NCBI GenBank assembly: GCA_032622095.1
Contig: CP136062.1
Location: forward strand, 151,954,875-152,018,874
Reading direction: 5' to 3'
Length of the DNA stretch: 64,000 bases
Origin: Siphonodentalium dalli
Taxonomy: Eukaryota > Mollusca > Scaphopoda > Gadilida > Siphonodentaliidae
Shown here: piece by piece, positions 666 to 53,880 of the stretch
Position numbering within the stretch: the first letter of the stretch is position 1
Layout: every line of letters begins with the position of its first letter
The notes under the pieces: generated by a model
The model's database searches: none
The model's input: only the letters and a program-made list of their open reading frames with translations
What the model was told of the DNA's origin: nothing
Translations under genes and position numbers: made by a program

Positions 666-3600
666 GTGAGTCATATTAAATTTCTGGGAATGTTTTCCAG
701 CTAACCTGATTGTCGGGAAATCTCCTGACACAATAAATTGCACTACTTCAAATTTGAGATGCGCAATAGCGCACCCAGTTTTCAAACTAGGTGCATCGAT
801 AAGTGCACGCCTTGGGGATTTGCCGATTTAACAAACAAGAAACGACATCGGAATCAACAAGGTTATTTTAGTGTGACTGGCGCAGACACAGCATTTTCAT
901 CAGACAATGTAATTTGATTTGTGCAATCGGGTTACCATCGTTGATCTGTGGCGATGTTTGATCCACAGGCGGTCACCTCACAGCATCGTTTGATCTTTCT
1001 TTTGTCACCTTTGTTATTTGTAGATTACAGCATCACTCTAATGTAATCTTGGATGAAATTTCATAAGGCATTTTTTTGTTATTACTTGGTTTACGGATTT
1101 CCCTATCCAAACAAAGCTGTTTGTCAATAAAAATAAAATTTTAGTTTTTGGTTTTTTTATTTCTGCCAATGGGAATATTAATCCTGACATATAACAAAAA
1201 TTAGAATAAATTATAATTTTACTTAAAATGTACAACATTGATTGAACAGCGAAGCCTTCTGGTGATGTTTTTGGTATTGAATGTCAACGCCAACATGGCA
1301 GACGCTGATATTGGCAATGTGTTTTCATCTATCCGTATCATGCTTTAAAGAAACATGCAAATAAAGAAATATATTTGCCCATGCTTGTTTTAGATGAGGA
1401 GATTATTATACAGCAAATATTTTATTTCTCCCGACCCTATTTTTTTGACAATTTAAATTAAAAAAAATATATACAGATTTTAGTTTTAGTTTTTTTCCTC
1501 CCATCTCCCCTACCTTTAAGCCAAAAAAATAAAATGCCTAATGTCACTAAAGGAACGTCTGTACACACAAACTATCATCACATAGTTACTCATTCTAACT
1601 CTCGAGAAGGAAGCAGTGATTTAATCTTAAATGTTTTACATTGTAGATTACCACCAGTGTACACACAGACTATAATCACTGAGTTACTCATTCTAACTCT
1701 CGAGAAGGAATCAGTGACTTAATCTTAAATGTTTTATATTATAGATTACCACCAGTGTACACACAGACTATAATCACTGAATTACTCATTCTAACTCTCG
1801 AGAAGGAATCAGTGACTTAATCTTAAATGTTTTACATTGTAGATTACCACCAGTGTACACACAGACTATAATCACTGAATTACTCATTCTAACTCTCGAG
1901 AAGGAATCAGTGACTTAATCTTAAATGTTTTATATTACAGATTACCACCAGTATACACACAGACTATAATCACTGAATTACTCATTATAACTCTCGAGAA
2001 GGAATCAGTGACTTAATCTTAAATGTTTTACATTGTAGATTACCACCAGTGTACACACAGACTATAATCACTGAATTACTCATTCTAACTCTCGAGAAGG
2101 AGGCGGAATCAGTGAAGACATCTCAACCAGAGCTCTCCACTTTCTCACCGGAAGCTTTGTTCGCACTGCAGCTCTATCACAGATGGTATGTGATATCCTG
2201 CATAAGTCTGCAAATAGTGTGTCTGTCATTTACAGAATGAGGTCCGCAGAGGAAGAATTTAGTGATGCTATCCTGCACAGCAGTCTAGAATCTCCACATT
2301 CACCCCCTGGGGATGTCATTCTGCTTAATCCTCAACTGCTATCGGAGACTTCACCTCGATTATGCATTTTATTTTCTGCAAATTAGGGGACTCACTCTGC
2401 TTAGGCCTCATCTTCTGGAAAGTATCTATATTCTCAAATTAACATTGTTTTTGGTTACTTTTTCCCTTCTATTCAGTTTCTATATCCCCTAATTTGCAGA
2501 AGTTAAATGGCATAATCGAGGTGAATAATGGGTGAACATCACCAACTTCAACTAGGGAACTTCAATCTGATTCTAGGTCTCCCATGCCAGTTGAGGTCCC
2601 CAGAGGGTGAATTTGGTGATGTTATTCCACTGTATGGGATAGCGTCACTAAATTCACCCTCTGGGGACCTCATTCTTCAAATGTCAGTCACAGTCTTAGT
2701 AGGGATTGAACGTTCAGATGATAACTTTGACAAACTTGTTTAAATTATCAATTCATTTGATGTTATGGCAATTGAGTTGTGCCTCATTGACATGATCATG
2801 GAGAAATTCATCAATAATGGAGGATGTAATGTAGTTTACTGAACACAAGAAAACTGATGTGACAAAAGTGATTGTTATCACTCCATCATATTTTATGATT
2901 TTTATCTTGACAGGTGTGCGCTGTTGATTGTGAAATCGAGTTACCAAGTGAGGCCAACTAGAGGACCATTCACTCAAGGGTATGTATGGCTCATATCAAT
3001 AAAGTCCATATTTAGTCATTAAATTTAAATATATTATTCAAAATTATTGTTGCTTCAGAAAACGATTTTTGAACTTGGTTAAAGTTTAATGTTGACAACG
3101 CAAACCACTGGCTAAAAGTGGCCAATTTATGGAAAATTGTCGGGTACTAATCCTGGGCTATTTTAACTGGATTCGGCTCGTTTGAACATTCACATAATTT
3201 ATATGTAATTGTACAGAGTGAATTCTAAATGCAGGTGTATAATTGTAATTTATAAGTTGTTAGTCTGTGGTAATAAATAATAAATTTCACTGGTATCGTC
3301 ATCAGTTCTGTTACCCATGTGATGGAGCATGCAACGTAACATTGCTTTTCGGCAGTAAGGTTCTCTATATCTTACAAAAGATTGTGTAGTAGTATACAAC
3401 AGGTCCAATGTGATGTTTTATGTCATTTATTTTCTCACCAGGGCTTATCCGAATGATCCAAATAATCTGGCGATTGCCAAAACAGAATCTATAATAACGG
3501 ATGTAAGTATGCTATTCCCTTTAATTTTGTATTCAGATGGGAAAACTGAAAATAGGGTTGAGTGCCATTTGTCTGAAGAAGACAGGTCTATCTCTTCCTG

Positions 3601-6600
3601 GCCATAATTACAACAAAAACATAAATTATATAAATCCAGATTTCAAGACTACAAATAGCTATTTTCTGTTTTTGTGAATAAAATACAGATAAAACTGAAG
3701 ATTAATTGTCTGTATTTAACCCTTTACCCAACAGAACGGCCCTGTGCCAATGCATTCTCTTATATATGCGAGTCGACCATAGGTCGACTCGCATATATAA
3801 GAGAATGCATTGGCTGGCACAGGACATAACTGTAACCATCACAATGTGGTCAATGAGCCGGTTCCAATGATATCCATATTTGTATGGTTTTATTGTGACA
3901 GACCCAAGATAATTTAGGCTGTTGCAGCTTTATTTGGCCGTTTTTGGCCGGTTTGTTGGGTAAAGGGTTAAGGCATAATAAAGTGGTTTATTTTCATCGT
4001 AATTCATGGTAAATACCTTAGCTGATCTGTAATTTGCCTTGATTGAGGGCGCTAACAAGATAGAGTTCTCCCCCTTGATTGAGGGCGCTAACAAGATAGA
4101 GTTCTCCCCCTTGAGCGCTAACAAGACAGAATGCTCTCTTTTGTATGCCCTTGATGCTCCAAACCTTTTCACTCAGATTACTGTTCTAAAAATAGTCCCT
4201 AAAACTATGCCATAAATTTCTAAAGAAATTCTATATAATATTGATATTAATTGATAGAAGCTTTTACGGACAGGTGTCTTTGATTCATATATATTATTTT
4301 ATACCGTGGAATCTATATAAAACTTGCAGGGAGAGTTGGACCATCTTTAATTGTTTGACATCAGGATCAAGGAAAGCTTCAAATGTTGTATCTCTATTGG
4401 ACAACACTTACAATAGACCGATTCTTCTTGGTGATAGCGTTTGGGTTGATGCTGTTTTGGACCGAGTCCCCTCCCGTTATTCTATAACGTTCTTTATGCC
4501 CCAGAATCATTAGCGGGAGTTATCTTGTTTGTATGTTTTCGGATTAGGTCAAATGGATGCTTTGCATAAAGCATATATGAACATAGAGGGCAGCCTTTCC
4601 CAAGCATGATGATATCAAATATGCGTATATGAGAGGTCTGTTAAATGTCAACGCCACAGGATTTATAAGTAAGCAAACTTTTGTTTTCCAGAGAATTTTT
4701 ATTTGTCGCGCAATTAGAAAATGCATGTAAACAATACATTAACCCTTTACCCAACAAAACGGCCAAAAACGGCCAAATAAAGCTTTAACAGCCTAAAATA
4801 TCTTCGGTCTGTCTCAATAGAACCATACAAATATGGATATCATTGGAACCGGCTCCTTGACCACATTGTGATAGTTACAGTTATGCCCTGTGCCAATGCA
4901 TTCTCTTATATATGTGAGTCGACCATAGGTCGCCTCGCATATATAAGAGAATGCATTGGCCTAAAAAAAATCTTTTTTTAACACATTTTACCATTTTTTC
5001 TTACATTCTTTAACAATTTTATAATTTTTAATGTGTTAAGCCAATGCATTCTCTTATATATGCGAGGCGACCTATGCATTGGCACAGGGCCGTTCTGTTG
5101 GGTAAAGGGTTAAATGATTGTATCATCACTTTACCTTTTTCTATCAAGGGATGTGATATTTCAGATATTTCAGATGATTAATCACATTCATGGGTTTGTG
5201 TGAATGCCTGGGCTCCACATGTACATCAAGGGATGTGATATTTCAGATATTTCAGATGATTAATCACATTCATGGGTTTGTGTGAATGCCTGGGCTCCAC
5301 ATGTACATGTAGTATGTCTTTTGAATGAATGAAGACTCGCATATATATTAAGAGAATGCACTAGCACAGTGTTTTCGCAAAATTTCAGGAAGATCCATTC
5401 ATGGAAGGGTTAAGCTATCATAAGCCGTCCTGTGATGATGAAGCGGGTTCGATTTCAGTTCATTCGCACATTCATGTATCTTAGCGCGTGTATCATCACT
5501 AAATTCAACCTCTGTGAACCTCATTCTGCTTAGGCATCATCTATTGCGAAATATCTATCGTCTCAATTTAATATTGCTTTTACTTACTTTTTCCCTTCTG
5601 ATCAGTTTCTATATACCCTAATTTGCAGAAGATAAGATGCATAATTGAGTAGTTTTCTAATCACCAACATAAACTTAGAACTTCAATCTGATCCTAGGTT
5701 TCTCATAGCAGTTGAGGCCAAAGCAGAATGAGGTTCCCAGAGGGCGAATTTGGTGATGCTAGCCCACTGTGCGTGATAGTGTCACTAAATTCACCCTCTG
5801 GGGACCTAATTCTGCAAATATCAGACACACTATATCCAGGCTTGTTGATAATCCCGATCTCTATCTTTGTAGGTGAAGGAACACATCGATACGACCATCG
5901 ATTCCCTCAAGCGATGTGCCCACTGTGGGCAGGAGATGAGGATGCCCACGCTGTCATGTTTTGGTATGCCGATTAAAGGTTCTGAGCACGTCGACCTGTG
6001 GTGGGATATAGGGGTTAACATTCCCAGTAATGAATATATCTGTCAGGTAAGAAATAAATGTTCATGCATGATATCTCAATTCCTCAGGGGGTGTTGACAT
6101 GCATTGGCCTAACAATTTTAATAATTTTTTCTTGTATTCTTTAACAATTTTATAATTTCACCCATACAGAGCCCCAGACAAACATGAGCAGACGATTCTC
6201 TTCTATATGCTTCTATATATGTGTGGGACTCCCTGCAGGGTAATGGATGTTTTTTTTATTTTATGTCCTAAAAATTGTAAGAAACATTTATTTAAAAAAA
6301 ATGATAAAAAATTGTTAGGCCAATGCATTCTCTTATATTTGCGAGGCGACCTATGGTCGACTCGCATATATAAGAGAATGCATTGGCACAGGGTAAAAAA
6401 ATCCTGATTACGACTGGATTTGATATGGCGGGTCACATATATACCTTTGTTTTTAGTCAATTTTATATGGAGGCTAGCAGGGTTCATGCTGTTGGTGGCC
6501 AAATTAACCAGGCATGAGAATATTGTGCCAGATATTTGCAGAATGAGGTTCCCAAAGGGTGAATGCGGTGGGCTAGCATCACGAAATTCATCCTCTTGGG

Positions 6601-45600: not shown

Positions 45601-48600
45601 TGTATATTTGGCTAAATAAATCTTAATTTGATTTAACCCTTTACCCAACAGAGCGGCCCTGTGCCAATGCATTCTCTTATATAAGCGAGTCGACCATAGG
45701 TCGCCTCGCATATATAAGAGAATGCATTGGCTTAACACATTAAAAATTATAAAATTGTTAAAGAATGTAAGAAAAAATGGTAAAAAGTGTTAAATTTTTT
45801 ATTTTTTTTAGGCCAATGCATTCTCTTATATATGCGAGGCGACCTATGGTCGACTCGCATATATAAGAGAATGCATTGGCACAGGGCATAACTGTAACTA
45901 TCACAATTTGGTCAAGGAGCCGGTTCCAATGATATCCATATTTGTATGGTTCTATTGAGACAGACCGAAGATATTTTAGGCTGTTGAAGCTTTATTTGGC
46001 CGGTTTGTTGGGTAAAGGGTTAAGAGAGAAATGTGCCACAGTTTCATTGATATTTTGTTCTTCATTCAACAGGTTGCAGTGCTTTGCCAGTTCCTTGATG
46101 AAGTTGATTATACGACGGCATTCAAGTCCCTCCAGGAGAAGAATACCTACGACGCCATGGATACTTACTACGGCTGTATATGGGATATCAGTATACTCGA
46201 ATATCTAGTCCGTATCCTTGTCTGATGAAAGAAGACCTATTGAGTAGTCGTACTAGGAGCTTTTAACCCTTTACCCAACAGAAGGGCCCTGTGCCAATGC
46301 ATTCTCTTATATATGCGAGTCGACCATAGGTCACCTCGCATATATAAGAGAATGCATTGGCTTAACACATTAAAAATTATAAAATTGTTAAAGAATGTAA
46401 GAAAAAATGGTAAAAAGTGTTAAAAAAAAGATTTTTTTAGGCCAATGCATTCTCTTATATATGCGAGGCGGCCTATGGTCGACTCGCATATATAAGAGAA
46501 TGCATTGGCACATGGTATAACTGTAACTATCACAATGTGGTCAAGGAGCCGGTTCCAATGATATCCATATTTGTATGTTTCTATTGAGACAGACCGAATA
46601 TATTTTAGGCTGTTGAAGCTTTATTTGGCCGGTTTTGGCCGGTTTGTTGGGTAAAGGGTTAAGAAATACACTGGAGTCAGTAATTATGCCCCTGACCCCT
46701 GGAGGAGGTTTGGGGTATATAGTCATGAGCTCTGGCCATCCATCTGCCTGTCCATCCTCAATCTATTTATCTGCAAACATTTCAGCTTCTTACCCGGGTT
46801 GAATTAATGGATTTGGGTTTCCTTTTATATGGTGGTTTTCCTTTTATATGGTAATATGCTTGTTAACCCTTTACCCAACAAACCGGCCAAAACCGGCCAA
46901 ATAAAGCTTCAACAGCCTAAAATATCTTGGGTCTGTCTCAATAGAACCATACAAATATGGATATCATTGGAACCGGCTCCTTGACCACATTGTGATAGTT
47001 ACAGTTATGCCCTGTGCCAATGCATTCTCTTATATATGCGAGTCGACCATAGGTCGCCTCGCATATATAAGAGAATGCATTGGCCTAAAAAAAATCTTTT
47101 TTTAACACTTTTTACCATTTTTTCTTACATTCTTTAACAATTTTATAATTTTTAATGTGTTAAGCCAATGCATTCTCTTATATATGCGAGGCGACCTATG
47201 GTCGACTCGCATATATAAGAGAATGCATTGGCACAGGGCCGTTCTGTTGGGGTAAAGGGTTAAATTAGTTCACTAGGAAGACCGGTATTAATTTTATTAT
47301 GCATGTTTATGTGGAACTACTAACATTTTGTCGACAGGTCAAAGCTTGATTGAGCAAATTATAATTCTAGCACATTTTGTCATTTTCACAGAAATTTTGT
47401 AGAATATAACGATCTCTCGGGGTATAAATCTCAATATCCACCATTAAATGTTTGTGTTATTATTTGCAGTTCACATACATTTAATTTGATAATCTTATGT
47501 AGCCTTGGTTTCTCTGTGGCTGTGCCATGGAAAGTGCCTGCCTAGCTGTTTACTGATTATCTGATGCCACAATTGGCTGATGGTTAACCCTGACTCCGAT
47601 ATACATGTACATGTGTATGTTGGCAGATTTAATCTATAAATTCATGGAACACTATATTATTTACAGTGTTATGAAACACTTTCAATGTCAATGATATAGA
47701 AAGAAACAGATACACATTGTTGCAAAACTATTTCTGCTGAAGTCAGCTGACACTACCTTTGATAATATGTTGCCCGAAAAAGAATTTTGGGGGATTATAG
47801 AAATGAGCTGTGTACATCCGTCCGTCTGGCAGACCATTTCTGATGGAGTTATGCCCCTTTTTTGACTTAGAATTTGCAGACTATTATTCTGGTAAATAAT
47901 CAAAAATTGTAACAACATAAACAGTTGGAAGAAAAGTTTGTTTCAATGATTGTTCCCAGAATCAATATTTTCATTTTTAAAATGCCACTGGTCAAATAAA
48001 GCCACTATATTCGTGCAATTTGTGGCCTAGCGGTCTTCTATTTATTTTAACAAAGAAATAACAGGTGTCAGCAGTGGTAACTTCTGTGTAATGTTATACT
48101 CACACATAAAGCATGTGCGCACTGTATAAAATGATTGTCTACTTGTAAGATGACCAATTTTTATATCGATATAGGCTCATCACTACAGTGTAGTCCATTA
48201 ATTGTTATCACCAATTGTTGATCCTTAACCTTATAAGACTTACACTTGAAGAGAGGAGAAATGGACAAGAAGCAAACAGCTGTAAGTTAATACATAGATA
48301 ATCTTAATAGATAATCTCTCATACTTAACATAGATAATCTCACAGATAATCTCTCATACTGCCGACTTCTTAAAATTGCTAGCAGCTAAGATTTATTCTC
48401 TTCTGCCTTTTTTAACCCTTCCTTGACTGGATCTTCCTGAAATTTTATGAAAACCCTGTGCCAATCTAATGGGGCTGATAGGTTCAATTTACTATGAATC
48501 AGGTACCTGTTTAAATTGGGGCAAGGGCAAGAAATGTCGCGAAAGGCGTTATCTTAGTTGGTTTTGCAGCATTATCCGTCTCAGAAATGTCAACATATGA

Positions 48601-51600: not shown

Positions 51601-53519
51601 GGTGGAGGGCCGTTAGCGGTAATTTGAACGCGGTTACGAAAAAAATACCGCGGTGTACGGCGGTAACGAACACCAATAACGCGGTGACCAACGGTAAAAA
51701 TACCGTACCAGTACCGCAGGTCAACCGCCCTCCGTCGCGGTACAGAATGATAACCGCGGTATTTTGGTGGTAACACCGCGGTAAGTACCGGCCCATAACC
51801 TCGTTAAACAGGTCGCTTACTGAGAGCATAGCTGTATGTTGGAAAATTGGTGCACAGAGGTAAAATGACACGGGGAATGTCATGGGATAGGTGCAGTTGA
51901 TCTCAAATGACTTAAATATGCACTAATAATTATCAATAAAGAGCGTTTATTATCAGCTGAAAAGATAGATGGTAACTTTATCTGGAGACTGTAAGCCAAT
52001 AGGCGCTGTTTACCTCAGGCACTAATAATTTACTTATTCTTCACACGATTTTCCTGCATGTCATGTTTGTCACCTGTCATTTTTGACGGGCAGTCGCCTA
52101 GTTATATGTATAATTAGAGGAATATACAATGTACAAAATTTCCATTGGGGAACTTATAAATAATATACATGAGGAAAGGCGCAGACGATTGTCTCAAAGA
52201 TTAACATTTCCAGGACAGATAACTCTGTATAACCTACGAAGATAACGCCTTTCACAGAACTGTCTCAGTTTGTACTTCACAGAAGTTAAAGTAGAATTTT
52301 AATTATAGACTTTCATCTTAGGGTAGATACAAATGCCTATTGAATTAACATTGCTGTCTAAGCTGTCATCTGCCATCAAGCCATGAAACAGTGTGTCTGT
52401 CATTTGCAGAATGAGGACCCAAGAGGGTGAATTTAGTGATGCAATCCCGCATGGTGGGCTAGTGTCACTAAATTCACTCTCTGTGAACCTCATTCTGCTT
52501 AGGCCTCAATTGCTATGTGAGATCAGATTGAAGTTCCCCAGTTGAAGTTAGTGATGTTCACCCTTTAGTCACCTTGATTATGCATTTTATCTTCTGAAAA
52601 TTAGGGAATATAGAAACTTTCCAGAAGGGAAAAAGTAACTAAAAACAATGTAAATTTGATACCATAGATACTTCCCAGAAGATGAGGCCTAAGCAGAATG
52701 AGGTCCCCAGAGGGTGAATTTAGTGATGCTAGCCCGCTATGCGGGATAGCGTCACTAAATTCACCCTCTGGGGACCTCGTTCTGCAAATGACAGACACGC
52801 TATTTGCAGACTTGGCAAAAAGTAACTAAAAACAATGTTAATTTGAGACTATAGATACTGTACTTCCCAGAAGATGAATTAAGCAGAATTAGGTCCCCAG
52901 AGGGTGAATTTGATGATGCTAGCCCGATGTGTTAGATATAACTAAATTCACCGTCAGGGAAGTCCCCTTTACTTTGATTACGATTACCCCTGCTGGGGAC
53001 CTCATTCTGCATAACAGACATACTATTTGTACTATTTGCAGGCTTATCAGCCATTATTGTTGTGAGCAAGCCTTGAAATAGTGTGTCTGTCATTTGCAGA
53101 ATGAGGTCCCCAGAAGGTGAATTTAGTGATGCTACCCCGCATAGCGGGCTAGCATCACCAAATTCACCCTCTGGGGACCTCATTCTGCTTACACCTCAGC
53201 AGAATGAGGTTCCCAGAAGGTGAATTTGGTGATGCTAGCCCGCTATGCGGGGTATCATCACTAAATTCACCCTCTGGGAACCTCATTCTGCAAATGACAG
53301 ACACGCTATTTCAAAGCTTGGTTGTGAGTGTTCTGTTTATTTCCCCGCACTCAATGTCTCCTGTTGATTATTATTATCAAGTTTGTTTAATAATCTTTTC
53401 AGATGAGAGCTATCGGACAATTAGAATTGAATTGTAACAACCCAGATGAAATATTACAGAGAGCTGTATCGGTGCGGAGGAGCAAATTTCTCAGAGCATT
53501 AGCAAAACAATACATCTGA
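548..53519 (+). CDS. INTS8: Integrator complex subunit 8, 25 exons, 5'-partial
   Basis: Whole-gene entry; exons are listed separately. I joined 25 exons with GT..AG introns and every phase agrees, giving 2 nt of a split codon, 923 residues and TGA. The order of conserved blocks follows animal INTS8 (about 995 residues in human) from roughly residue 75 to the C-terminus. The first part is outside the window, including the N-terminal WFEF motif known to bind PP2A. INTS8 is an all-helical TPR-like scaffold. With INTS5 it forms the phosphatase module that brings PP2A to Integrator, in the nucleus, to oppose Pol II phosphorylation during snRNA 3' processing and promoter-proximal termination. No frameshift or internal stop is seen, so the gene looks functional. 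AATAAA motifs at 54348 and 54738 are possible but unproven poly(A) signals. Several introns are mostly mobile DNA. Confidence 0.95.
666..1548. other. Intron, no feature seen
   Basis: AT-rich intron sequence. I see no exon, hairpin or repeat related to the rest of the window. Confidence 0.5.
1549..2102 (+). repeat. 98-bp tandem array over the exon 2 acceptor
   Basis: ATTACCACCAG recurs at 1647, 1745, 1843, 1941 and 2039, exactly 98 bp apart. A more diverged copy starts near 1549. Each unit has intron tail, an AG acceptor (TTGTAG, TTATAG, TTGTAG, TTACAG, TTGTAG) and the first 60 or so bases of exon 2. Only the last copy continues into the full exon. The inner copies run into an in-frame stop after LEKESVT. 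Confidence 0.95.
2039..2185 (+). CDS. INTS8: INTS8 exon 2
   Basis: It joins exon 1 by completing a Gly codon and reads LPPVYTQTIITELLILTLEK, then FSPEALFALQLYHR, ending inside the Trp codon of the conserved YNRW motif. Donor GTATGT. The real acceptor is the last of the tandem copies. Compared with the inner copies it has 6 extra bases (GGCGGA region) that remove the stop. Confidence 0.93.
2212..2700. repeat. Fold-back MITE (family F), about 490 bp
   Basis: Family F consensus, from copies here: outer ends CAAGCCTTGAAATAGTGTGT and its complement. Near each end lies a 90-bp hairpin with arms AGAATGAGGTCCCCAGAGGG and TGAATTTAGTGATGCTA. An AT-rich middle contains CCCCTAATTTGCAGAAGATA. This copy starts 26 bp after the exon 2 donor. 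Its left hairpin is decayed; its right hairpin (2592-2677) is good. Confidence 0.75.
2914..2979 (+). CDS. INTS8: INTS8 exon 3
   Basis: Acceptor CTTGACAG, donor GTATGT. It completes Trp and reads CALLIVKSSYQVRPTRG, aligning with human WAIRTIVQSSFPVKQAKPG. It ends with 2 nt of a Gly codon. Confidence 0.93.
2980..3441. other. Intron, no feature seen
   Basis: Ordinary AT-rich intron; the acceptor TTTTCTCACCAG ends it. Confidence 0.5.
3442..3502 (+). CDS. INTS8: INTS8 exon 4
   Basis: Short exon encoding G-A-YPNDPNNLAIAKTESIITD with donor GTAAGT, ending in phase 0. Sequence similarity to human is low here (a linker region). It is supported by phase, strong splice sites and its place between well matched exons. 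Confidence 0.85.
3716..3971 (+). mobile_element. TTAA MITE family P, copy 1 (one hairpin)
   Basis: Family P consensus: TTAA at both ends, terminal inverted repeat CCCTTTACCCAACA, one or two 68-nt hairpins (GCCAATGCATTCTCTTATAT arms, GTCGACC/ATA/GGTCG loop), and a right part with CATCACAATGTGGTCAA and GGCCGGTTTGTTGGG. TTAA target plus a CCC start is typical of piggyBac-type MITEs. This 256-bp copy keeps only one hairpin. Confidence 0.85.
4037..4141. repeat. 36-bp tandem repeat, three copies
   Basis: CCTTGATTGAGGGCGCTAAC recurs at 4037 and 4073. A third copy at 4109 lacks 8 bases (CCTTGAGCGCTAACAAGA). Intronic, with no coding role seen. Confidence 0.85.
4739..5113 (-). mobile_element. TTAA MITE family P, copy 2
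   Basis: 375 bp in reverse orientation, with TTAA at 4739 and 5110. It has both hairpins; the right one is shortened. The spacer between hairpins reads TTTACCATTTTTTCTTACAT, as in other reverse copies. Confidence 0.85.
5143..5306. repeat. 82-bp tandem duplication
   Basis: ATCAAGGGATGTGATATTTC starts at 5143 and again at 5225; the two units are almost identical through CTCCACATGTACAT. Confidence 0.9.
5489..5833. repeat. Fold-back MITE family F, left end lost
   Basis: Starts inside the left hairpin (ATCACTAAATTCAACCTCTG) and runs through the middle to a good right hairpin (5727-5811) and the end TCAGACACACTATAT. The end lies 39 bp before the exon 5 acceptor. Confidence 0.75.
5873..6046 (+). 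CDS. INTS8: INTS8 exon 5
   Basis: 58 codons in phase 0, acceptor ATCTTTGTAG, donor GTAAGA. Reads VKEHIDTTIDSLKRCAHC and later GSEHVDLWWDIG..NEYICQ. This matches the human VLKEQAADSILVLEAAL to EEMQCQ stretch in position and pattern. Confidence 0.92.
6098..6395. repeat. Decayed family P-like MITE with one good hairpin
   Basis: Begins CATTGGCCTAACAATTTTAA and has the spacer-like TTCTTGTATTCTTTAACAAT. It ends with a near-perfect 68-nt hairpin at about 6319-6388, followed by GGCACAGGG. The family P termini are not visible. Confidence 0.6.
6527..7135. repeat. Fold-back MITE family F, interrupted
   Basis: Left hairpin about 6538-6615 (decayed), middle with TTTGGAGATATAGAGAAACT, right hairpin split by an insertion at 6897-7096. 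The right arm resumes at 7097 with ATTCACCCTCTGGGGACCTC and ends GCAAATGTCCAG. The middle is in the opposite sense to the copies at 2212 and 18487. Confidence 0.75.
6897..7096. mobile_element. 200-bp insertion flanked by 10-bp direct repeats
   Basis: CTATATTCAC occurs at 6887-6896 and again at 7097-7106, exactly where the fold-back hairpin is broken. This makes it a target-site duplication. The insert contains GGGGTATATCTAAGTGGTTA, faintly like a Pol III A box, and ends TTGGTAATAAATATGTTTAA. A SINE-like or other retroposed origin is possible. I do not recognise the family. Confidence 0.7.
7136..8120. other. Intron, no feature seen
   Basis: AT-rich intron with no recognised repeat or exon. 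It ends in the acceptor TTACTCTACAG. Confidence 0.45.
8121..8213 (+). CDS. INTS8: INTS8 exon 6
   Basis: 31 codons, phase 0 both sides, donor GTCAGT. Reads ISFDVGSYFFYHESYEQAST then FHEADEMLPQ, the counterpart of human VCYDLGAAYFQQGS..KFFRTKELIAE, a TPR-like helix pair. Confidence 0.94.
8420..8970. repeat. Dispersed repeat (GTTGTCCGGATGGTAACTT type)
   Basis: GGTTGTCCGGATGGTAACTT occurs twice (about 8677 and 8849), each followed by similar text. A block with GTTCCCAGAATC and AAAGCCACCAGTCAAAT returns at about 47945-48060. This is a dispersed, internally duplicated repeat of unknown class. Confidence 0.55.
9089..9235 (+). CDS. INTS8: INTS8 exon 7
   Basis: 49 codons, acceptor TTTCCTATAG, donor GTGAGT. 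CSVDEKRLKGYVIACNSL matches human CTIDEKRLAGYCQACDVL, one of the strongest family matches in the window. It ends RVEECRKHNYT, and that tail is part of a tandem array. Confidence 0.96.
9194..9531 (+). repeat. 81-84-bp tandem array over the exon 7 donor
   Basis: CCAGGACAGGGT recurs at 9196, 9277, 9361 and 9444. Each of the four units has the last 40 or so bases of exon 7, the junction ACACA/GTGAGT unchanged, and then the first 40 bases of the intron. Copies 3 and 4 share GAGTGCAGAAACAT, which lacks one A. Only copy 1 is attached to the exon. Confidence 0.95.
9533..9935. repeat. Fold-back MITE family F
   Basis: Starts CTGGACATTTGCAGAATGAG and ends GCAAATGTCCAGC. Its left hairpin has collapsed to two short arms (9548-9590). 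Its right hairpin at 9821-9925 is nearly complete. The middle contains TTTGGGGATATAGAGAAACT. It lies 33 bp from the Tigger-like element. Confidence 0.75.
10717..10922 (+). pseudogene. Tigger/pogo DDE transposase fragment
   Basis: An open stretch reading WMNSNVFLEWLNLINSKM, then DRKILLLLDNFSGHP. This is the pattern around the second catalytic Asp of DDE_1 (Tigger/jerky-like) transposases, where LLLDN..AHP is common. The rest of the protein is gone, so it cannot encode an active enzyme. It supports the class call for the enclosing element. Confidence 0.8.
10958..11345 (+). repeat. CACCTGAGAC dispersed repeat
   Basis: TAGCTCACCTGAGACAAAGT, CTCCGGTGGAGCTA, a CCGTCCGT-rich tract, then GTTCATATTTGGTGTGGATG and CAGATTTGTTCAAATGAGG. 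Related copies lie near 12300, 59981, 60548, 61494 and 62561. I recall this repeat from bivalve genomes (memory, not a search). Confidence 0.7.
11757..12222. repeat. Fold-back MITE family F
   Basis: Ends TTTAGTGTGTCTGACATTTG and GCAAATGTCAGACACACTAT. Both hairpins are mutated, so this is an older copy inserted in the Tigger-like element. Confidence 0.7.
12300..12660 (+). repeat. Diverged CACCTGAGAC-type repeat
   Basis: Keeps the CTGTC/CCATC-rich tract (12330-12410), ATATATCTCAGTGTGCATGT and CAGATTTGTTCAAAT twice, without the CACCTGAGAC start. Confidence 0.55.
12662..12775. repeat. Single family F hairpin
   Basis: AATGAGGGCCCCAGAGGGTG and CACCTTTTGGGGACCTCCTT form a mutated hairpin followed by CAGACATATCC. 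A fold-back remnant. Confidence 0.6.
14021..14118 (+). CDS. INTS8: INTS8 exon 8
   Basis: Acceptor TTCTTTTTCAG, donor GTACGT. GLIDVLLEDNLKQELS aligns with human EVIQIFIEDNLTLSL. Ends with 2 nt of a Ser codon. Confidence 0.94.
14160..14245. repeat. 31-bp tandem repeat
   Basis: AAAGACACACATGATCTC, AAAGACACCCAGGATCTCAC and AAAGACACCCAGGATCTCAA sit at about 31-bp spacing just downstream of exon 8. They do not include exon sequence. Confidence 0.8.
14296..15056 (+). mobile_element. Helitron-like non-autonomous element
   Basis: Starts TCTATTATATATTTTGAAAG, with CTATCTATCTGTCTGTCTGT soon after, and ends CTAG at 15053-15056 preceded by an imperfect hairpin (CCGGAC/GAA/GTCGGG). The flanks are A and T, as expected for Helitron insertion. 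The start matches the element at 42670-43037. No Rep/helicase coding is seen. Confidence 0.6.
15079..15150. repeat. Right half of a family F fold-back
   Basis: GTAGCGTCACTAAATTCACC through GCAAATGTCAGACACACTAT and TTTCAAGGCATGG. It lies 23 bp past the Helitron-like end and about 80 bp before the exon 9 acceptor. Confidence 0.7.
15232..15364 (+). CDS. INTS8: INTS8 exon 9
   Basis: Acceptor TAATTTATTTCAG, donor GTAAGA. TICNVIRGILEGKALVSR matches human CACNTVRDILEGRTISVQ. An acidic run (EEEDEDVM) follows before RFLMQ. Confidence 0.95.
15728..15890 (+). repeat. Dispersed repeat shared with 25270-25460
   Basis: CATTAATGTGATGTGAAATA, GGGTGATC and CTTGTTCAAAGTAGTTATTT occur here. The complement of the same string occurs near 25380-25460 in diverged form. 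An old MITE-like family. Confidence 0.6.
15939..16003 (+). CDS. INTS8: INTS8 exon 10
   Basis: 65-nt exon, acceptor TATCCTTTTCAG, donor GTAAGC, reading VLLFTMKGASYGQRSNLRCF. It supplies the 2-nt phase that exon 11 needs, which is the main evidence that it is real. Confidence 0.9.
16052..16715. repeat. Fold-back MITE family F with an internal insertion
   Basis: Left arm CATTCATCCTCTGGGGACCT, middle with GATATTTTGGGGATTTTGAG, right hairpin 16614-16700 nearly perfect, end GCAAATGTCCAGCACC. About 300 bp of unrelated sequence (about 16310-16600) sits in the middle. Confidence 0.65.
17133..17287. repeat. Hairpin pair of a family P relative (subfamily Q)
   Basis: Two imperfect hairpins (TGCCAGTGCATGCTCTTATA.. 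and GGCCAATGCATTTTCTTATA..) are separated by TTACAACGTCAAGGTAAATA. CCTTTCATGATGGGAGCTGT lies just before. The same spacer and hairpins occur at 53997 and 58735. Confidence 0.6.
17288..17686 (+). mobile_element. TTAA MITE family P, copy 3
   Basis: 399 bp with TTAA at 17288 and 17683, both 68-nt hairpins, and the complete right part. It abuts the subfamily Q hairpins and lies 100 bp before exon 11. Confidence 0.88.
17786..17979 (+). CDS. INTS8: INTS8 exon 11
   Basis: Acceptor TTATATTCGCAG, donor GTATGT. With exon 10 it reads LHLCSLLPYNSRFSEMLM, then SELKSYFPADESLESML, an acidic stretch and FSSMSK. It aligns with the human FLKNVCLGLEDLQYVFMISS region. Read without exon 10 the frame would stop, so exon 10 is required. 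Confidence 0.92.
18050..18190. repeat. 56-bp tandem repeat, three copies
   Basis: GTGGCCCCTTTGTGCACTCC begins near 18049 and 18105, and a diverged GTGGCTTCTTTGTGCACTTC at 18161. Intronic, 70 bp after the exon 11 donor; no exon bases are included. Confidence 0.85.
18487..18838. repeat. Fold-back MITE family F
   Basis: Left hairpin 18506-18592, middle CCCCTAATTTGCAGAAGATA, right hairpin partly deleted (18777-18830). It ends about 30 bp before the exon 12 acceptor. Confidence 0.75.
18869..19008 (+). CDS. INTS8: INTS8 exon 12
   Basis: Acceptor TTTCCTTGGCAG, donor GTCAGT. IVEKQLLHIYDPDIIHKLIM aligns with human QLEHQLILSVDPWRIRQILI. It ends ELSEE in phase 0. Confidence 0.95.
19040..19248 (-). repeat. 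TTAA-ended repeat, family R
   Basis: Ends ATCAATGAGTATTTAGTATAGAAAGGGTTAA. Inside are GGAAATGTTCAGATAATA and its complement TTATCTGAACATTTCC, a fold-back centre. Relatives: 26370-26630, 34126-34348, 55343-55430. Family P copy 4 is inserted at its terminal TTAA. Confidence 0.65.
19245..19634 (+). mobile_element. TTAA MITE family P, copy 4
   Basis: 390 bp, two hairpins, TTAA at 19245 and 19631. The 5' TTAA is also the last four bases of a family R repeat. Confidence 0.88.
20338..20835. repeat. Fold-back MITE family F between duplicated exon 13 flanks
   Basis: The element (about 20371-20804) has two good hairpins. It is bracketed by a 35-bp direct repeat, ACTCATGCCC.GTTCT.CAA to TTTTGACATTC, at 20338-20372 and 20801-20835 (32 of 35 identical). 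The right copy runs into the exon 13 acceptor. Confidence 0.75.
20853..20963 (+). CDS. INTS8: INTS8 exon 13
   Basis: 37 codons, acceptor TTGTGTTTCAG, donor GTAAAT. WKLPRELRLPL, then YIFIMLAKARHCMTIK. Human has WEVPSVY and YILMAKGLHCSTVK. Confidence 0.96.
20985..21310. repeat. Dispersed repeat with a fold-back right half
   Basis: 20985-21240 has CATCCGTCC/CCATCTGTCCG tracts and TATATCTCAACTATGGGTTA, text typical of dispersed repeats here. At 21248-21310 the right half of a family F hairpin (TAGCGTCACTCTATTCACCC to AATGTCCAGCACC) is inserted. Confidence 0.5.
21411..22158 (+). repeat. Duplicated exon 14 acceptor region
   Basis: A block with AAAATAAGTATTAAAAGCCC..CTCATCATATTTTCCTGAGA and ending CTGATTTTAGCTATTTGAGA occurs at about 21411-21560 and 21962-22105. 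A third, shorter version (CTGAATTTAGCTTTTTGAGA) is the real acceptor and exon start at 22149. Copies 2 and 3 are 69 bp apart. Family P copy 5 sits between copies 1 and 2. Confidence 0.88.
21561..21961 (-). mobile_element. TTAA MITE family P, copy 5
   Basis: Reverse orientation, both hairpins, left target mutated to CTAA, right TTAA at 21958. Inserted at the boundary of the duplicated exon 14 flank. Confidence 0.87.
22159..22366 (+). CDS. INTS8: INTS8 exon 14
   Basis: Longest exon (208 nt), donor GTATGT. LFEKARLLLITAENIVKD and IRWQVLLADLQQFYHN align with human AKQLFAACLELVTEFS and LRQVMLNEMLLLDIH. It is followed by SSSVQDLIKKTKTCL. Confidence 0.95.
22782..23478. mobile_element. 697-bp TIR element with TTA target duplication
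   Basis: Left end GGCCAAACAAAAAAAAGGTT..TTGGTTCTCAGGC; the right end is its complement, GCCCGAGAACCAAAACACTT..GGCC. TTA lies on both sides (22779-22781, 23479-23481). A TTA duplication suggests the PIF/Harbinger class. No transposase is seen. A relative with GGCC..TTCTCAGGC ends may lie at 20103-20297. Confidence 0.65.
23627..23733 (+). CDS. INTS8: INTS8 exon 15
   Basis: Acceptor GTTCCTTGCAG, donor GTAATG. VLELCASFLLNIREWDYL aligns with human VIAEECVAFMLNWRENEYL. Confidence 0.95.
23874..24300. repeat. Fold-back MITE family F
   Basis: Ends GGTGTGTCTGGCATTTACAG and GTAAATGTCAGACACATTAT. Left hairpin 23913-23997; the right hairpin has lost part of one arm. Confidence 0.7.
24301..25566. other. 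Intron with one old repeat
   Basis: Mostly featureless AT-rich DNA. About 25270-25460 is a reverse, diverged copy of the 15728-15890 repeat (shared AACTACTTTGAGCAAGAT and TTTCACATCACTTTAATG). Confidence 0.5.
25567..25651 (+). CDS. INTS8: INTS8 exon 16
   Basis: Acceptor GATATTTTCAG, donor GTTAGT. FGRLLSVTCKEVHNLKS then PARDLWEA; human LGQLLAATCKELPGPKESRRTAKDLWE. Its last 45 or so bases start a tandem array. Confidence 0.96.
25613..25925 (+). repeat. 58-66-bp tandem array over the exon 16 donor
   Basis: GAGATCTCTGGGAAG recurs at 25634, 25700, 25766, 25824 and 25883. Copies 1 to 4 keep the exon/intron junction G/GTTAGT and copy 5 has GGCTAGT. Copies 1-3 carry the GCTCG.AAACC exon part; copies 4 and 5 have lost it. 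Copy 1 is the exon. Confidence 0.95.
26208..26338 (+). CDS. INTS8: INTS8 exon 17
   Basis: Acceptor ATTCATTTTAG, donor GTGAGC. VVQMFMMNVQSKRS, ESAMQRDTQIGILPRH, GFLTKLK; human VVVQICSVSSQHKRG, RESTLGIMYR, SFIKKLR. Confidence 0.96.
26370..26632 (+). repeat. TTAA-ended repeat, family R
   Basis: Starts TTAACCCTTTCTATACTAAA and ends AACTACTCGTCAATGATTAT. Central fold-back GGAAATGTTCAGATAATA / TTATCTGAACATTTCC. Confidence 0.65.
27084..27143 (+). CDS. INTS8: INTS8 exon 18
   Basis: 20 codons: D-T then TVLGLLISCLTKFYNILK. Acceptor ATTTTTTTCAG, donor GTTAGT. Human: PLVLTIILSLFVKLHNVRE. It is short but fits in phase and pattern. Confidence 0.93.
27144..27840. other. Intron, no feature seen
   Basis: Start of an 8 kb intron; no recognised repeat before about 27840. 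Confidence 0.4.
27840..28352. repeat. Two-copy repeat left of the DIRS-like element
   Basis: CCCTAACATGAAATTTGAGATATACC (27850) returns as CCTAATGTGAAATTAAGATATACC (28237). TATGCGATAGAC at 28288 matches 33729 on the far side of the DIRS-like element (CATATGCGATAGACCCTTCC), so the flanking repeat was probably split by it. Confidence 0.5.
28353..33409 (+). mobile_element. DIRS-like retrotransposon 1, non-autonomous
   Basis: Inverted terminal repeats at about 28353-28530 and 33210-33409 share TATCTATTGTCTAGTCAGTT, GAATACACCCGCATTCTATC and CTCACATCCGTGTCCAG. Near the right end, 33048-33145 is an internal complementary region. Its first half is the complement of the left terminus (TTGAGGGCTTCTCCTTGGCG) and its second half the complement of the right terminus (CCTTAAGGGAAGCCCGAAAC). 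This layout is diagnostic of DIRS-type elements. I see no long open frame and no RT or tyrosine recombinase, so it is a defective or non-autonomous copy. Orientation is taken from the position of the internal region. Confidence 0.8.
30046..32215. repeat. Repeated modules inside DIRS-like element 1
   Basis: A module with CTGGGTGGGGAAGACTCGTT, CTTCTGACTCTTCCCCATGG, ACAAGATGGGGTCCAGTCGA and CCTGGAAT.GTAATACCTTC occurs at about 30058, 31006 and 31671. It continues as two 178-bp tandem units from about 31880 and 32058 (AAAGAAAGGCTGAATGATCT before each). Long frames read through these are repeat artefacts. Confidence 0.8.
33420..34030. repeat. Direct two-copy repeat right of DIRS-like element 1
   Basis: About 33465-33660 and 33815-34020 are diverged copies: CGCATATTTTCCTAGCCGTT/CGCATATATTTCTACCCGAT, CTAGCGGGCAGCCAATCCAT/CTAGCGGTCAACCATTCCAT, GGCCAATTTAAATAT/GGGCAATTTAAATAT. 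Confidence 0.6.
34126..34348 (-). repeat. TTAA-ended repeat, family R
   Basis: TATATTGCAATGGTGTATTA through TTATCTGAACATCTCCTGAG and ends AGTATTTAGTATAGAACGGGTTAA. Confidence 0.65.
34565..34973 (+). mobile_element. TTAA MITE family P, copy 6
   Basis: 409 bp, both hairpins, TTAA at 34565 and 34970. It carries an extra CCGGTTTGTTCAGGTTG duplication just before its right terminus. Confidence 0.88.
35019..35131. repeat. Subfamily Q hairpin remnant
   Basis: GTAAGCCATTGCACTCTCTT and its partner AAGAGAATGCACTGGCACAG form one hairpin around CTCCCTATGGGAG. It ends GCTCCATCATGAAAGGGTTAA, a different terminus from family P. Confidence 0.65.
35189..35250 (+). CDS. INTS8: INTS8 exon 19
   Basis: Acceptor CTCTTGTTACAG, donor GTAAGC. 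DDITSEISSDFVSIWPAAIS aligns with human NDITAEHISIWPSSI. Ends with 2 nt of an Asn codon. Confidence 0.96.
35609..35821. mobile_element. 213-bp fold-back MITE with TA target
   Basis: Almost one long hairpin: CAGTAATGCTCTAAATAATC to TTGCCATTCATTGGAAAGC, loop near 35709, then the complement back to CATTACTG. TA lies on both sides (35607, 35822). A Tc1/mariner-type or pogo-type MITE is likely. The arms differ at only a few bases. Confidence 0.85.
35822..36554. other. Intron, no feature seen
   Basis: AT-rich; ends in the acceptor TTTATTTTCAG. Confidence 0.45.
36555..36673 (+). CDS. INTS8: INTS8 exon 20
   Basis: Completes Asn, reads VSSLNTPAVTDAVTVLMT, then HQPTWLKTQADLHF. Human: NHSWLIIQADIYFA. 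Donor GTAAGG. Its last 11 or so bases start a tandem array. Confidence 0.95.
36663..36828 (+). repeat. 38-41-bp tandem array over the exon 20 donor
   Basis: TTGGTAAGGGTATTAAACAT recurs at 36671, 36712, 36750 and 36789. Each unit keeps the junction CTTTG/GTAAGG. Copies 1 and 2 also keep ACACTTTG; copies 3 and 4 have TTCTTTG. Confidence 0.95.
36925..37080 (-). repeat. CTAG-ended dispersed repeat, possibly Helitron-like
   Basis: CTAGCTGAAACAGGCTCCAT followed by GACAGACAGATCCTACTCTT resembles the CTAG end and the CTGTCTGTC-rich start of the Helitron-like elements here, in reverse. A short relative starts at 17997 (CTAGCTGAAACATGCTCC). Termini are uncertain. Confidence 0.35.
37383..37703. repeat. 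Fold-back MITE family F, cut by a DIRS-like element
   Basis: Starts CAAGCCGTGAAATAATGTGT. Left hairpin 37413-37500; right hairpin 37608-37697 ends abruptly at CCTCATTCTTCA, where DIRS-like element 2 begins. Confidence 0.7.
40918..41385. repeat. 230-bp direct duplication in DIRS-like element 2
   Basis: GTTCTCTGAGGGGCTATATA and GTTCTCTGTGGGGTTGTATA start two similar units (40919, 41149). They share CTCTGGCTCCGACCATTGGA / ATCTGGCTCCGACCATTAGA and TGTGATACATAGGTACCTCA. Confidence 0.85.
42670..43037 (-). mobile_element. Helitron-like element nested in the DIRS terminal repeat
   Basis: Read on the - strand it begins TCTCATATATATTTTGAAGA, has CTCTGTCTGTCTGTTTGTC, and ends with the hairpin CCCGGAC/AAC/GTCGGGC then CTAG. 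The + strand flanks are A and T. Removing it rejoins the DIRS right terminus to match its internal complementary region. It contains an internal 122-bp duplication (CAAGTCGATAGCTCCACCCG at 42718 and 42840). Confidence 0.7.
43099..43202 (+). CDS. INTS8: INTS8 exon 21
   Basis: Acceptor CTCTCTTTCAG, donor GTGAAA. NYMEAGVVASDFFSYNVPR then FDDQ. Human: YYLQAGAVCSDFFNKAVP..YTDQ. Confidence 0.96.
43419..43819 (-). mobile_element. TTAA MITE family P, copy 7
   Basis: 401 bp, reverse orientation, both hairpins, TTAA at 43419 and 43816. Confidence 0.88.
43820..44799. other. Intron, no feature seen
   Basis: No repeat or exon recognised. Confidence 0.45.
44800..45034. mobile_element. TTAA MITE, family S, carrying the family P hairpin
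   Basis: 235 bp with TTAA on both sides. Its terminal repeat CCCTTTGAGTGCCAGG / CCTGGCACTCAAAGGG is different from family P, but its inside holds the same 68-nt hairpin (44914-44983). Confidence 0.85.
45285..45335 (+). CDS. INTS8: INTS8 exon 22
   Basis: 17 codons, VYKRMIRCCSYLQCHTQ; human VIKRMIKCCSLLNCHTQ. Acceptor TTTTTCTGTAG, donor GTGAGT. Confidence 0.97.
45633..46023 (+). mobile_element. TTAA MITE family P, copy 8
   Basis: 391 bp, both hairpins, TTAA at 45633 and 46020. Its end is 49 bp before exon 23, so the MITE must leave the branch point region intact. Confidence 0.88.
46073..46211 (+). CDS. INTS8: INTS8 exon 23
   Basis: Acceptor CATTCAACAG. VAVLCQFLDEVDYTTAFKSL and DAMDTYYGCIWDISILEYL; human VAILCQFLREIDYKTAFKSL and DAMDSYYDYIWDVTILEYL. 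I place the donor at GTATCC (46212) because this gives V-H-LHLKRGE across the junction with exon 24, in register with human TYLHHKRGE. The donor is weak, and reading on hits a stop (TGA) soon after. Confidence 0.92.
46263..46662 (+). mobile_element. TTAA MITE family P, copy 9
   Basis: 400 bp, both hairpins, TTAA at 46263 and 46659. It starts 51 bp after the exon 23 donor and faces copy 10. Confidence 0.88.
46863..47263 (-). mobile_element. TTAA MITE family P, copy 10
   Basis: 401 bp, reverse orientation, both hairpins, TTAA at 46863 and 47260, one extra G before the right terminus. Confidence 0.88.
47264..48237. other. Intron with a diverged dispersed repeat
   Basis: About 47780-48065 matches the 8420-8970 repeat (GTTCCCAGAATCAATATTTT, CACTGGTCAAATAAAGCCAC). 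The rest shows nothing. Confidence 0.45.
48238..48281 (+). CDS. INTS8: INTS8 exon 24 (44-nt small exon)
   Basis: Reads LHLKRGEMDKKQTA after a split His codon; human YLHHKRGETDKRQIA. Donor GTAAGT is strong, but the acceptor is TTATAAG with a poor pyrimidine tract. Phase 2 in and phase 0 out both fit. Without it the exon 23/25 frame breaks. Confidence 0.9.
48679..52101 (+). mobile_element. Probable Helitron-like element split by a TIR transposon
   Basis: Starts TCTATCTATCTATATAAAAG after A and ends GACGGGCAGTCGCCTAG before T. The right hairpin is weak. Both sides of the nested 2.55 kb element (49268-51817) carry related text (AAATTGGTACACA / AAATTGGTGCACA, CAATAAAGAGAGTTTATCAT / CAATAAAGAGCGTTTATTAT). 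Confidence 0.45.
49268..51817. mobile_element. 2.55 kb TIR transposon with CGCGGTA-rich ends
   Basis: Left AGCGACCTGTTTTAACGAGG and right CCTCGTT.AAACAGGTCGCT form terminal repeats with TA on both sides (49266, 51818). About 200 bp inside each end is packed with ACCGCGGT / TACCGCGG-type words in both senses. The 2 kb centre has no recognisable transposase. Confidence 0.75.
52374..53322. repeat. Cluster of three family F fold-back elements
   Basis: 52374-52810 is a full-length copy; its right hairpin (52697-52786) is almost perfect. 52815-53045 is a truncated copy with a broken right hairpin. 53068-53322 is a compact copy with two near-perfect hairpins joined without the middle. The last ends about 80 bp before exon 25. 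Confidence 0.8.
53403..53519 (+). CDS. INTS8: INTS8 exon 25 (last coding exon)
   Basis: Acceptor AATAATCTTTTCAG. MRAIGQLELNCNNPDEILQ, then RSKFLRALAKQYI and TGA. Human ends IKAIGQTELNASNPEEVLQ..KKKFLQAMAKLYF. The end of this exon is unit 1 of a 59-bp array. Confidence 0.97.
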   Translation: MRAIGQLELNCNNPDEILQRAVSVRRSKFLRALAKQYI

Positions 53520-53880
53520 GGAACATATCGGTGCGGAGGAGTAAATTTCTCAGAGCATTGGCAAAACAATACATCTGAGAACCATATTGGTGCGGAGGAG
53601 TAAATTTCTCAGAGCAATAGTAAAACAATACATCTGAGGAACATATCGGTGCGGAGGAGTAAATTTCTCAGAGCAATAGTAAAACAATACATCTAAGGAA
53701 CATATTGGTGCGGAGGAGTAAATTTCTCAGAGCAATAGTAAAACAATACATCTAAGGAACATATTGGTGCGGAGGAGTAAATTTCTCAGAGCAATAGTAA
53801 AACAATACATCTAAGGAACATATTGGTGCAGAGGAGTACATTTCTTAGAGTGTTCTTAGAGTGTTAGCAAAACAATACAT
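53471..53880 (+). repeat. 59-bp tandem array over the INTS8 stop region
   Basis: GGTGCGGAGGAG starts at 53471, 53530, 53589, 53648, 53707 and 53766, and GGTGCAGAGGAG at 53825. The spacing is exactly 59 bp each time. Unit 1 encodes the last 16 residues and stop; units 2 to 7 should be 3' UTR. The period is not a multiple of three. Confidence 0.95.

What the first reader, a model, noticed from the sequence alone, without database searches (positions are those of the whole stretch)
1549..53880. Tandem arrays sit on exon edges in 6 of 25 INTS8 exons
Seen directly: exons 2, 7, 14, 16, 20 and 25 each have a tandem array whose unit spans an exon edge (3' splice site, 5' splice site, or coding end and stop). 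Periods differ (98, 81-84, 69, 58-66, 38-41, 59 bp), so the arrays arose separately. Extra acceptors lie only upstream and extra donors only downstream, leaving one intact exon. Minisatellites placed at random in 50 kb should rarely cover exon edges, because exons are only about 5% of the gene. Possible causes are repair or replication slippage at splice junctions linked to transcription, or selection for decoy splice sites. I know of no described system of this kind, but cannot rule one out.
Basis: partly seen in the sequence, partly recalled or inferred. Interest (0 to 1): 0.9.

Follow-up and report, generated by a model that had tools for sequence, protein, structure and literature searches.

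The report
Repeat arrays straddling exon edges
Short DNA repeats have multiplied right across exon borders in this animal gene and in other genes sampled from its genome, each time leaving one working border; such arrays were named 'mirages' in lancelets, and here they look like harmless by-products that arise at exon edges more often than nearby.

Summary
The six arrays are real: tandem units, 86-96% alike, crossing edges of INTS8 coding exons in a 2.23 Gb unnamed animal genome. In the window 6 of 15 arrays cover one of 48 exon edges; 1.1 are expected for one unit each (P 3e-4). INTS8 is not alone. In 179 exon regions chosen without regard to arrays (183 exons, 366 edges, 59 gene clusters) 15 private arrays span a splice site, in 14 clusters. 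Counted as duplication events, the edge rate is 5.5 times that of the next 100 bp of intron (P=0.0003) and 3.9 times that of random DNA (P=0.0005). If 60% of the far intron were repeat DNA the excess would be 2.4-fold, and raw base coverage shows none. Extra AG/GT sites decay at background rate (5 lost of 81, 6.3 expected), and 10 of 11 extras are lost in a twin gene copy, so selection for decoys is not supported. The phenomenon has a name: 'mirages', tandem repeats spanning exon-intron boundaries in amphioxus (PMC3087553). Verdict: mirages, probably neutral, widespread in another genome, with a modest excess at edges whose cause is open.

The parts
1560..2101 (+).
   Evidence: TRF; read; last copies' unit found only here in the genome
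9194..9530 (+).
22041..22170 (+).
25613..25929 (+).
36669..36828 (+).
53467..53850 (+). 59-bp x6.5 array across the coding end and stop of the last exon (53403-53519), running on downstream (presumed 3' UTR)
48292..48360 (+). 35-bp x1.9 array starting about 10 bp after the donor at 48281; does not cross it
14158..14242 (+). 30-bp x2.8 array starting 40 bp after the donor at 14118
18049..18191 (+). 56-bp x2.6 array starting 70 bp after the donor at 17979
4037..4130 (+). 36-bp array deep in an intron (comparison)
5143..5308 (+). 82-bp x2.0 array deep in an intron (comparison)

Best explanation
These are 'mirages': minisatellites born by tandem duplication of a stretch of roughly 30-130 bp that happened to include an exon edge, then lengthened or shortened by slippage or unequal exchange. 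Inside a coding exon such a duplication would break or lengthen the protein and is lost. Across an edge it is tolerated, because the copy next to the exon body still gives a complete edge and the extra copies fall into the intron or the 3' UTR. Shown: the arrays, their position, their recurrence at 15 of 366 sampled splice edges, none of 61 sampled arrays inside an exon, background-rate decay of the extra splice sites, and a copy-number difference between one pair of gene twins. Inferred: the duplication mechanism, that splicing ignores the extra copies, and that the excess over nearby intron comes from a higher duplication rate in or next to exons.
For: Six arrays in the window read by eye. 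15 private arrays over splice sites in 183 exons, read by eye; 0 of 61 arrays wholly inside an exon (after one donor, L011, was corrected by eye). Both ends hit: 5 acceptors, 10 donors. Extra splice dinucleotides lost in 5 of 81 copies against 6.3 expected from other dinucleotides of the same units; by the consensus measure 3 of 78 against 4.0. Twin gene: acceptor array 4.2 copies in L102, at least 12.4 in L181, where 10 of 11 complete extra copies lack AG at the homologous place. Same anatomy described for amphioxus Adh3 and globins (passages of PMC3087553).
Against: A purely neutral, uniform process predicts equal rates at edges and in introns, but the edge rate is 5.5 times that of the next 100 bp and 3.9 times that of random DNA, so something more is needed. 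No RNA was available to show that extra sites are ignored. 76 of 81 extra copies still carry the dinucleotide; L024 (16 of 16) and L193 (12 of 13) keep nearly all, though both are very uniform arrays. The copy-number difference rests on one twin pair.
Confidence: 0.8

Rival explanations
1. Duplication is made at exon-intron junctions by a process tied to transcription or chromatin (R-loops, paused polymerase, nucleosome edges), so edges are mutational hot spots.
For: Event rate at edges 5.5x the adjacent 100 bp (15 vs 5 events, P=0.0003), 5.9x the far flank (15 vs 20, P=2e-6), 3.9x random DNA (15 vs 12, P=0.0005). Array G+C is about the same at edges and elsewhere (0.345 vs 0.351), so composition does not explain it. 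Array ages look alike (92.7 vs 90.1% matches, P=0.58), so longer survival is not evident.
Against: Base coverage by private arrays is flat with distance (3.6 and 4.3% at 0-20 bp, 5.0 and 3.3% at 400-500 bp). With all arrays, dispersed ones included, 15 seen against 8.7 expected, P=0.018. One INTS8 array crosses the stop codon, not a junction. The near-edge count is small (5).
Confidence: 0.35
2. Age dilution and survival: exon edges are old DNA protected from deletion and transposon insertion, while much intron DNA is young, so edges had more time to gather arrays.
For: DNA found in 3 or more other loci rises from 1% (acceptor side) and 8% (donor side) within 20 bp of edges to 8-26% at 20-100 bp and 25-35% beyond 100 bp, a lower bound for repeats. 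If 60% of the far flank were repeat (assumed), the excess would be 2.4x, P=0.011.
Against: The first 100 bp of intron has less repeat DNA than the far flank, yet the same low event rate (5 in 36.6 kb, 20 in 156.8 kb). Edge arrays are not more diverged than others.
Confidence: 0.4
3. Selection keeps the arrays as decoy or back-up splice sites.
For: Most extra copies still carry AG or GT (76 of 81).
Against: The loss rate equals that of other dinucleotides; 10 of 11 extra acceptors are lost in L181.
Confidence: 0.05
4. Assembly error.
For: Tandem repeats are often misassembled; one amphioxus mirage appears to have been (supplement legend of PMC3087553, seen).
Against: Copies within the 15 sampled arrays match at 81-97%, with their own substitutions, and the pattern recurs in 14 gene clusters and in two copies of one gene.
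Confidence: 0.03

Closest known systems
'Mirages' of amphioxus (Adh3, Canestro et al. 2002, not held, known here only through the citing paper; globins BflGb6 and BflGb9, passages of PMC3087553)
   Same: Minisatellite-like tandem repeats whose unit spans an exon-intron boundary, at 5' or 3' ends of exons, units of different length, 81-100% identity between units of BflGb6, unstable copy number (6 and 3 units in two haplotypes).
   Different: Here in a 2.23 Gb genome of nine contigs (190-301 Mb), so not a lancelet (their smaller genome is recalled, not looked up). Counted over 59 gene clusters, with an excess over flanks by event counts. One array crosses a stop codon. No RNA evidence.
Intron gain by tandem genomic duplication (Rogers model; potato RdRp case PMC4974935, search listing and start of abstract only)
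   Same: Tandem duplication that includes splice signals.
   Different: Here the arrays sit at edges of exons beside existing introns; in the arrays read I saw no new intron formed between copies.
Ordinary intronic minisatellites
   Same: Similar period (median 47 vs 40 bp), copy number (median 4.0 vs 2.8) and similarity.
   Different: The unit includes an exon edge.

Membership tests
Mirages (exon-boundary minisatellites) | tandem units spanning an exon-intron boundary | tested here: met
   5 splice edges in INTS8 and 15 in the sample
Mirages (exon-boundary minisatellites) | both 5' and 3' exon boundaries affected, units unrelated between genes | tested here: met
   5 acceptor and 10 donor arrays; 14 of the 15 spanning units match at most one other locus held, L141 matches three, which are other SNF2 exon regions
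Mirages (exon-boundary minisatellites) | unstable copy number | tested here: met
   one case only: 4.2 against at least 12.4 copies in twin genes; no haplotype or somatic data
Mirages (exon-boundary minisatellites) | regular splicing of the mRNA not disturbed | not testable with these tools
   no RNA; one complete edge next to the exon body remains in the arrays read
Intron gain by tandem duplication | a new intron lies between duplicated exon segments | tested here: not met
   in the arrays read, extra copies lie on the intron side of a splice edge or beyond the stop
Decoy splice sites under selection | extra AG/GT conserved above background | tested here: not met
   5 of 81 lost, 6.3 expected; 10 of 11 lost in L181

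The most novel reading that the evidence does not exclude
In this animal genome exon-intron junctions are mutational hot spots for short tandem duplication, several times above unique intron DNA, so that about one exon in twelve carries a mirage. Such arrays would be a steady supply of spare splice sites from which exon borders can move.
Probability: 0.35. Interest if true: 0.7.

Novelty: new member of a known kind. Interest (0 to 1): 0.45.

Why it matters
As far as the papers seen here tell, mirages are known from a few lancelet genes. Finding them at about 4% of sampled splice edges in a much larger genome shows that they can be a general feature of an animal genome. It makes the question of whether exon junctions attract tandem duplication countable, and offers natural material for how splicing picks one site among many near-identical ones and for how exon borders or introns arise.

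Tried and rejected
Rejected: decoy selection; base composition as cause; greater age of edge arrays; a mobile element carrying the units; assembly error. Literature searches for such arrays: in the listings shown (one search listed 20 of 51) the amphioxus globin paper was the only report that I recognised; subscription papers are mostly not in that library. A search for the genome's own paper led nowhere.

Sampling: 227 hits of three Pfam families; 22 dropped beforehand (near-identical gene twins, genes in one long frame, two very long hits full of stops); the other 205 merged to 197 regions, of which 179 were fetched and 18 not, for the caps. The myosin hits were not used because of local amplification. 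Region L141 showed its repeats in the hit list before sampling; without it 14 seen against 4.5 expected. L134 (array ends 2 bp before the called exon start) and an acceptor-side array of L193 (ends at the AG) were not counted as spanning. Edges were called with a rough, recalled splice matrix; those under arrays were read by eye, and the donors of L011 and L078 corrected. The first tallies, on 160 regions, were 11 edges by machine and 12 with L011. In the random control one transposon-like array of 13 was left out. The 60% repeat figure is an assumption, not a measurement. In the window, 11 of 15 arrays were taken as private by eye; by the 3-places rule it would be 14 of 15.

Full report
What was checked. 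The window lies at C2:151954875-152018874 of an unnamed animal genome of 2.23 Gb in nine contigs. The gene is INTS8: exon translations match PDB chain 7cun_H with E 3.4e-46, and all 15 genome matches of those translations, which cover the first part of the gene, fall in this window. Tandem Repeats Finder gave 37 rows. The six arrays named in the finding are there with the periods stated, and reading the DNA confirms that each unit crosses an acceptor, a donor or the stop codon. I placed 24 coding exons, five of them partly by recall of the human protein; the gene begins upstream of the window, since the first exon seen aligns near residue 75 of the human chain.

Is it chance in this gene? I took 15 arrays between 1 and 54000 and placed one unit of each at random in the collapsed sequence. 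Six cover one of 48 edges, 1.08 expected (P 3e-4). For the 11 that I took as private by eye it is 0.59 (P 1e-5); by the rule of three other places 14 of the 15 count as private. Whole uncollapsed arrays at random give 1.58 (11 arrays, P 0.0016) or 2.40 (15, P 0.02). Three more arrays start 10 to 70 bp after a donor, so 9 of the 11 lie at or within 75 bp of an edge. The gene was picked because of these arrays, so a test elsewhere was needed.

The wider test. I searched the genome with three Pfam families unrelated to the finding: SNF2 helicase (73 matches), kinesin (123) and class I tRNA synthetase (31). After dropping 22 hits, 197 regions of about 1.3 kb remained and 179 were fetched, with 20 random pieces of 3.2 kb as control. 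They hold 183 exons in 59 gene clusters. With period 25 or more there are 61 merged arrays, 21 of them dispersed. Fifteen private arrays span a splice site, in 14 of 59 clusters: five acceptors and ten donors. None of the 61 lies wholly inside a called exon. INTS8 has 6 of 24 exons affected, its stop-codon array included, against 15 of 183 (P 0.02); for splice edges alone 5 of 47 against 15 of 366 (P 0.06). So INTS8 is a rich example of a general feature.

Is there an excess at edges? It depends on the measure. Base coverage by private arrays shows none: 3.6% and 4.3% within 20 bp of acceptors and donors, 5.0% and 3.3% at 400-500 bp (160 regions). But an array of many copies stems from one duplicated unit, so events are the better count. 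Random placement of one unit per array in its own region expects 4.8 private edge arrays (15 seen, none of 20,000 trials as high), or 8.7 with all arrays (P 0.018). As rates per possible start, edges exceed the next 100 bp 5.5-fold (15 vs 5 events, P 0.0003), the far flank 5.9-fold (15 vs 20), and random DNA 3.9-fold (15 vs 12, P 0.0005; one transposon-like random array of 13 left out). If 60% of the far flank were repeat, an assumed figure, the excess would be 2.4-fold (P 0.011). DNA found in three or more other loci is 26% of the flank, a lower bound for repeats.

What the extra copies do. The order 'acceptors upstream, donors downstream' is forced: a tandem duplication over an edge leaves the complete edge next to the exon body. 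If extra sites were useful, their AG/GT should be kept. In 20 arrays (5 of INTS8, 15 of the sample) 81 extra copies cover the dinucleotide; 5 have lost it, against 6.3 expected from other dinucleotides of the same units (by the consensus measure 3 of 78 against 4.0). A twin of the gene in L102 lies 0.76 Mb away (L181). A 917-bp alignment of the two is 91% alike, and both carry the 47-bp acceptor array, 4.2 copies in one and at least 12.4 in the other, where the array runs off the fetched piece; in L181 10 of 11 complete extra copies lack AG at the homologous place. So arrays persist and change length, and copies with a broken site can be the ones that multiply.

What it works like and what it is. 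Tandem repeats over exon-intron boundaries were named 'mirages' in amphioxus Adh3 and found in two amphioxus globin genes, at either exon end, with 81-100% identity between units of one gene, haplotypes of 6 and 3 units, and splicing apparently undisturbed; [quoted passage not shown] the 2002 paper is not held). The present arrays meet the anatomical features tested. Use in RNA could not be tested.

Mechanism. The simplest account is tandem duplication followed by slippage or unequal exchange, filtered by selection: lost inside coding exons, tolerated at edges, neutral in introns. The array at the stop codon fits this and needs no splicing. What the account leaves open is the excess. Composition (array G+C 0.345 at edges, 0.351 elsewhere) and age (92.7 vs 90.1% matches, P 0.58) do not explain it. 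Dilution of introns by young transposons may explain part. A real hot spot at junctions is possible and would be the new finding; I give it about one in three.

Noticed in passing
G000 contig C4, 158-291 Mb: Many similar myosin-head loci, about ten between 274.2 and 275.5 Mb, suggesting recent local amplification of a myosin gene.
   Followed up: no
e.g. C5:65.39 and 66.15 Mb, C7:208.0, 209.5 and 209.8 Mb, C4:298.24 and 298.75 Mb: Several conserved genes appear to have close twins nearby on the same contig (equal match positions and scores); one twin pair (L102, L181) was used to compare array lengths.
   Followed up: partly
   Followed up: partly
L190 691-1141: A 21-bp x22 array starts about 9 bp after a called donor; not counted because its period is under 25.
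   Followed up: no
L083 1141-1243 and L090 27-187: The same 53-bp intronic array has 1.9 copies in one gene twin and 3.0 in the other.
   Followed up: no
window 10711-10920: An open frame that resembles a Tigger/pogo-type transposase (recognised from recall, not searched).
   Followed up: no
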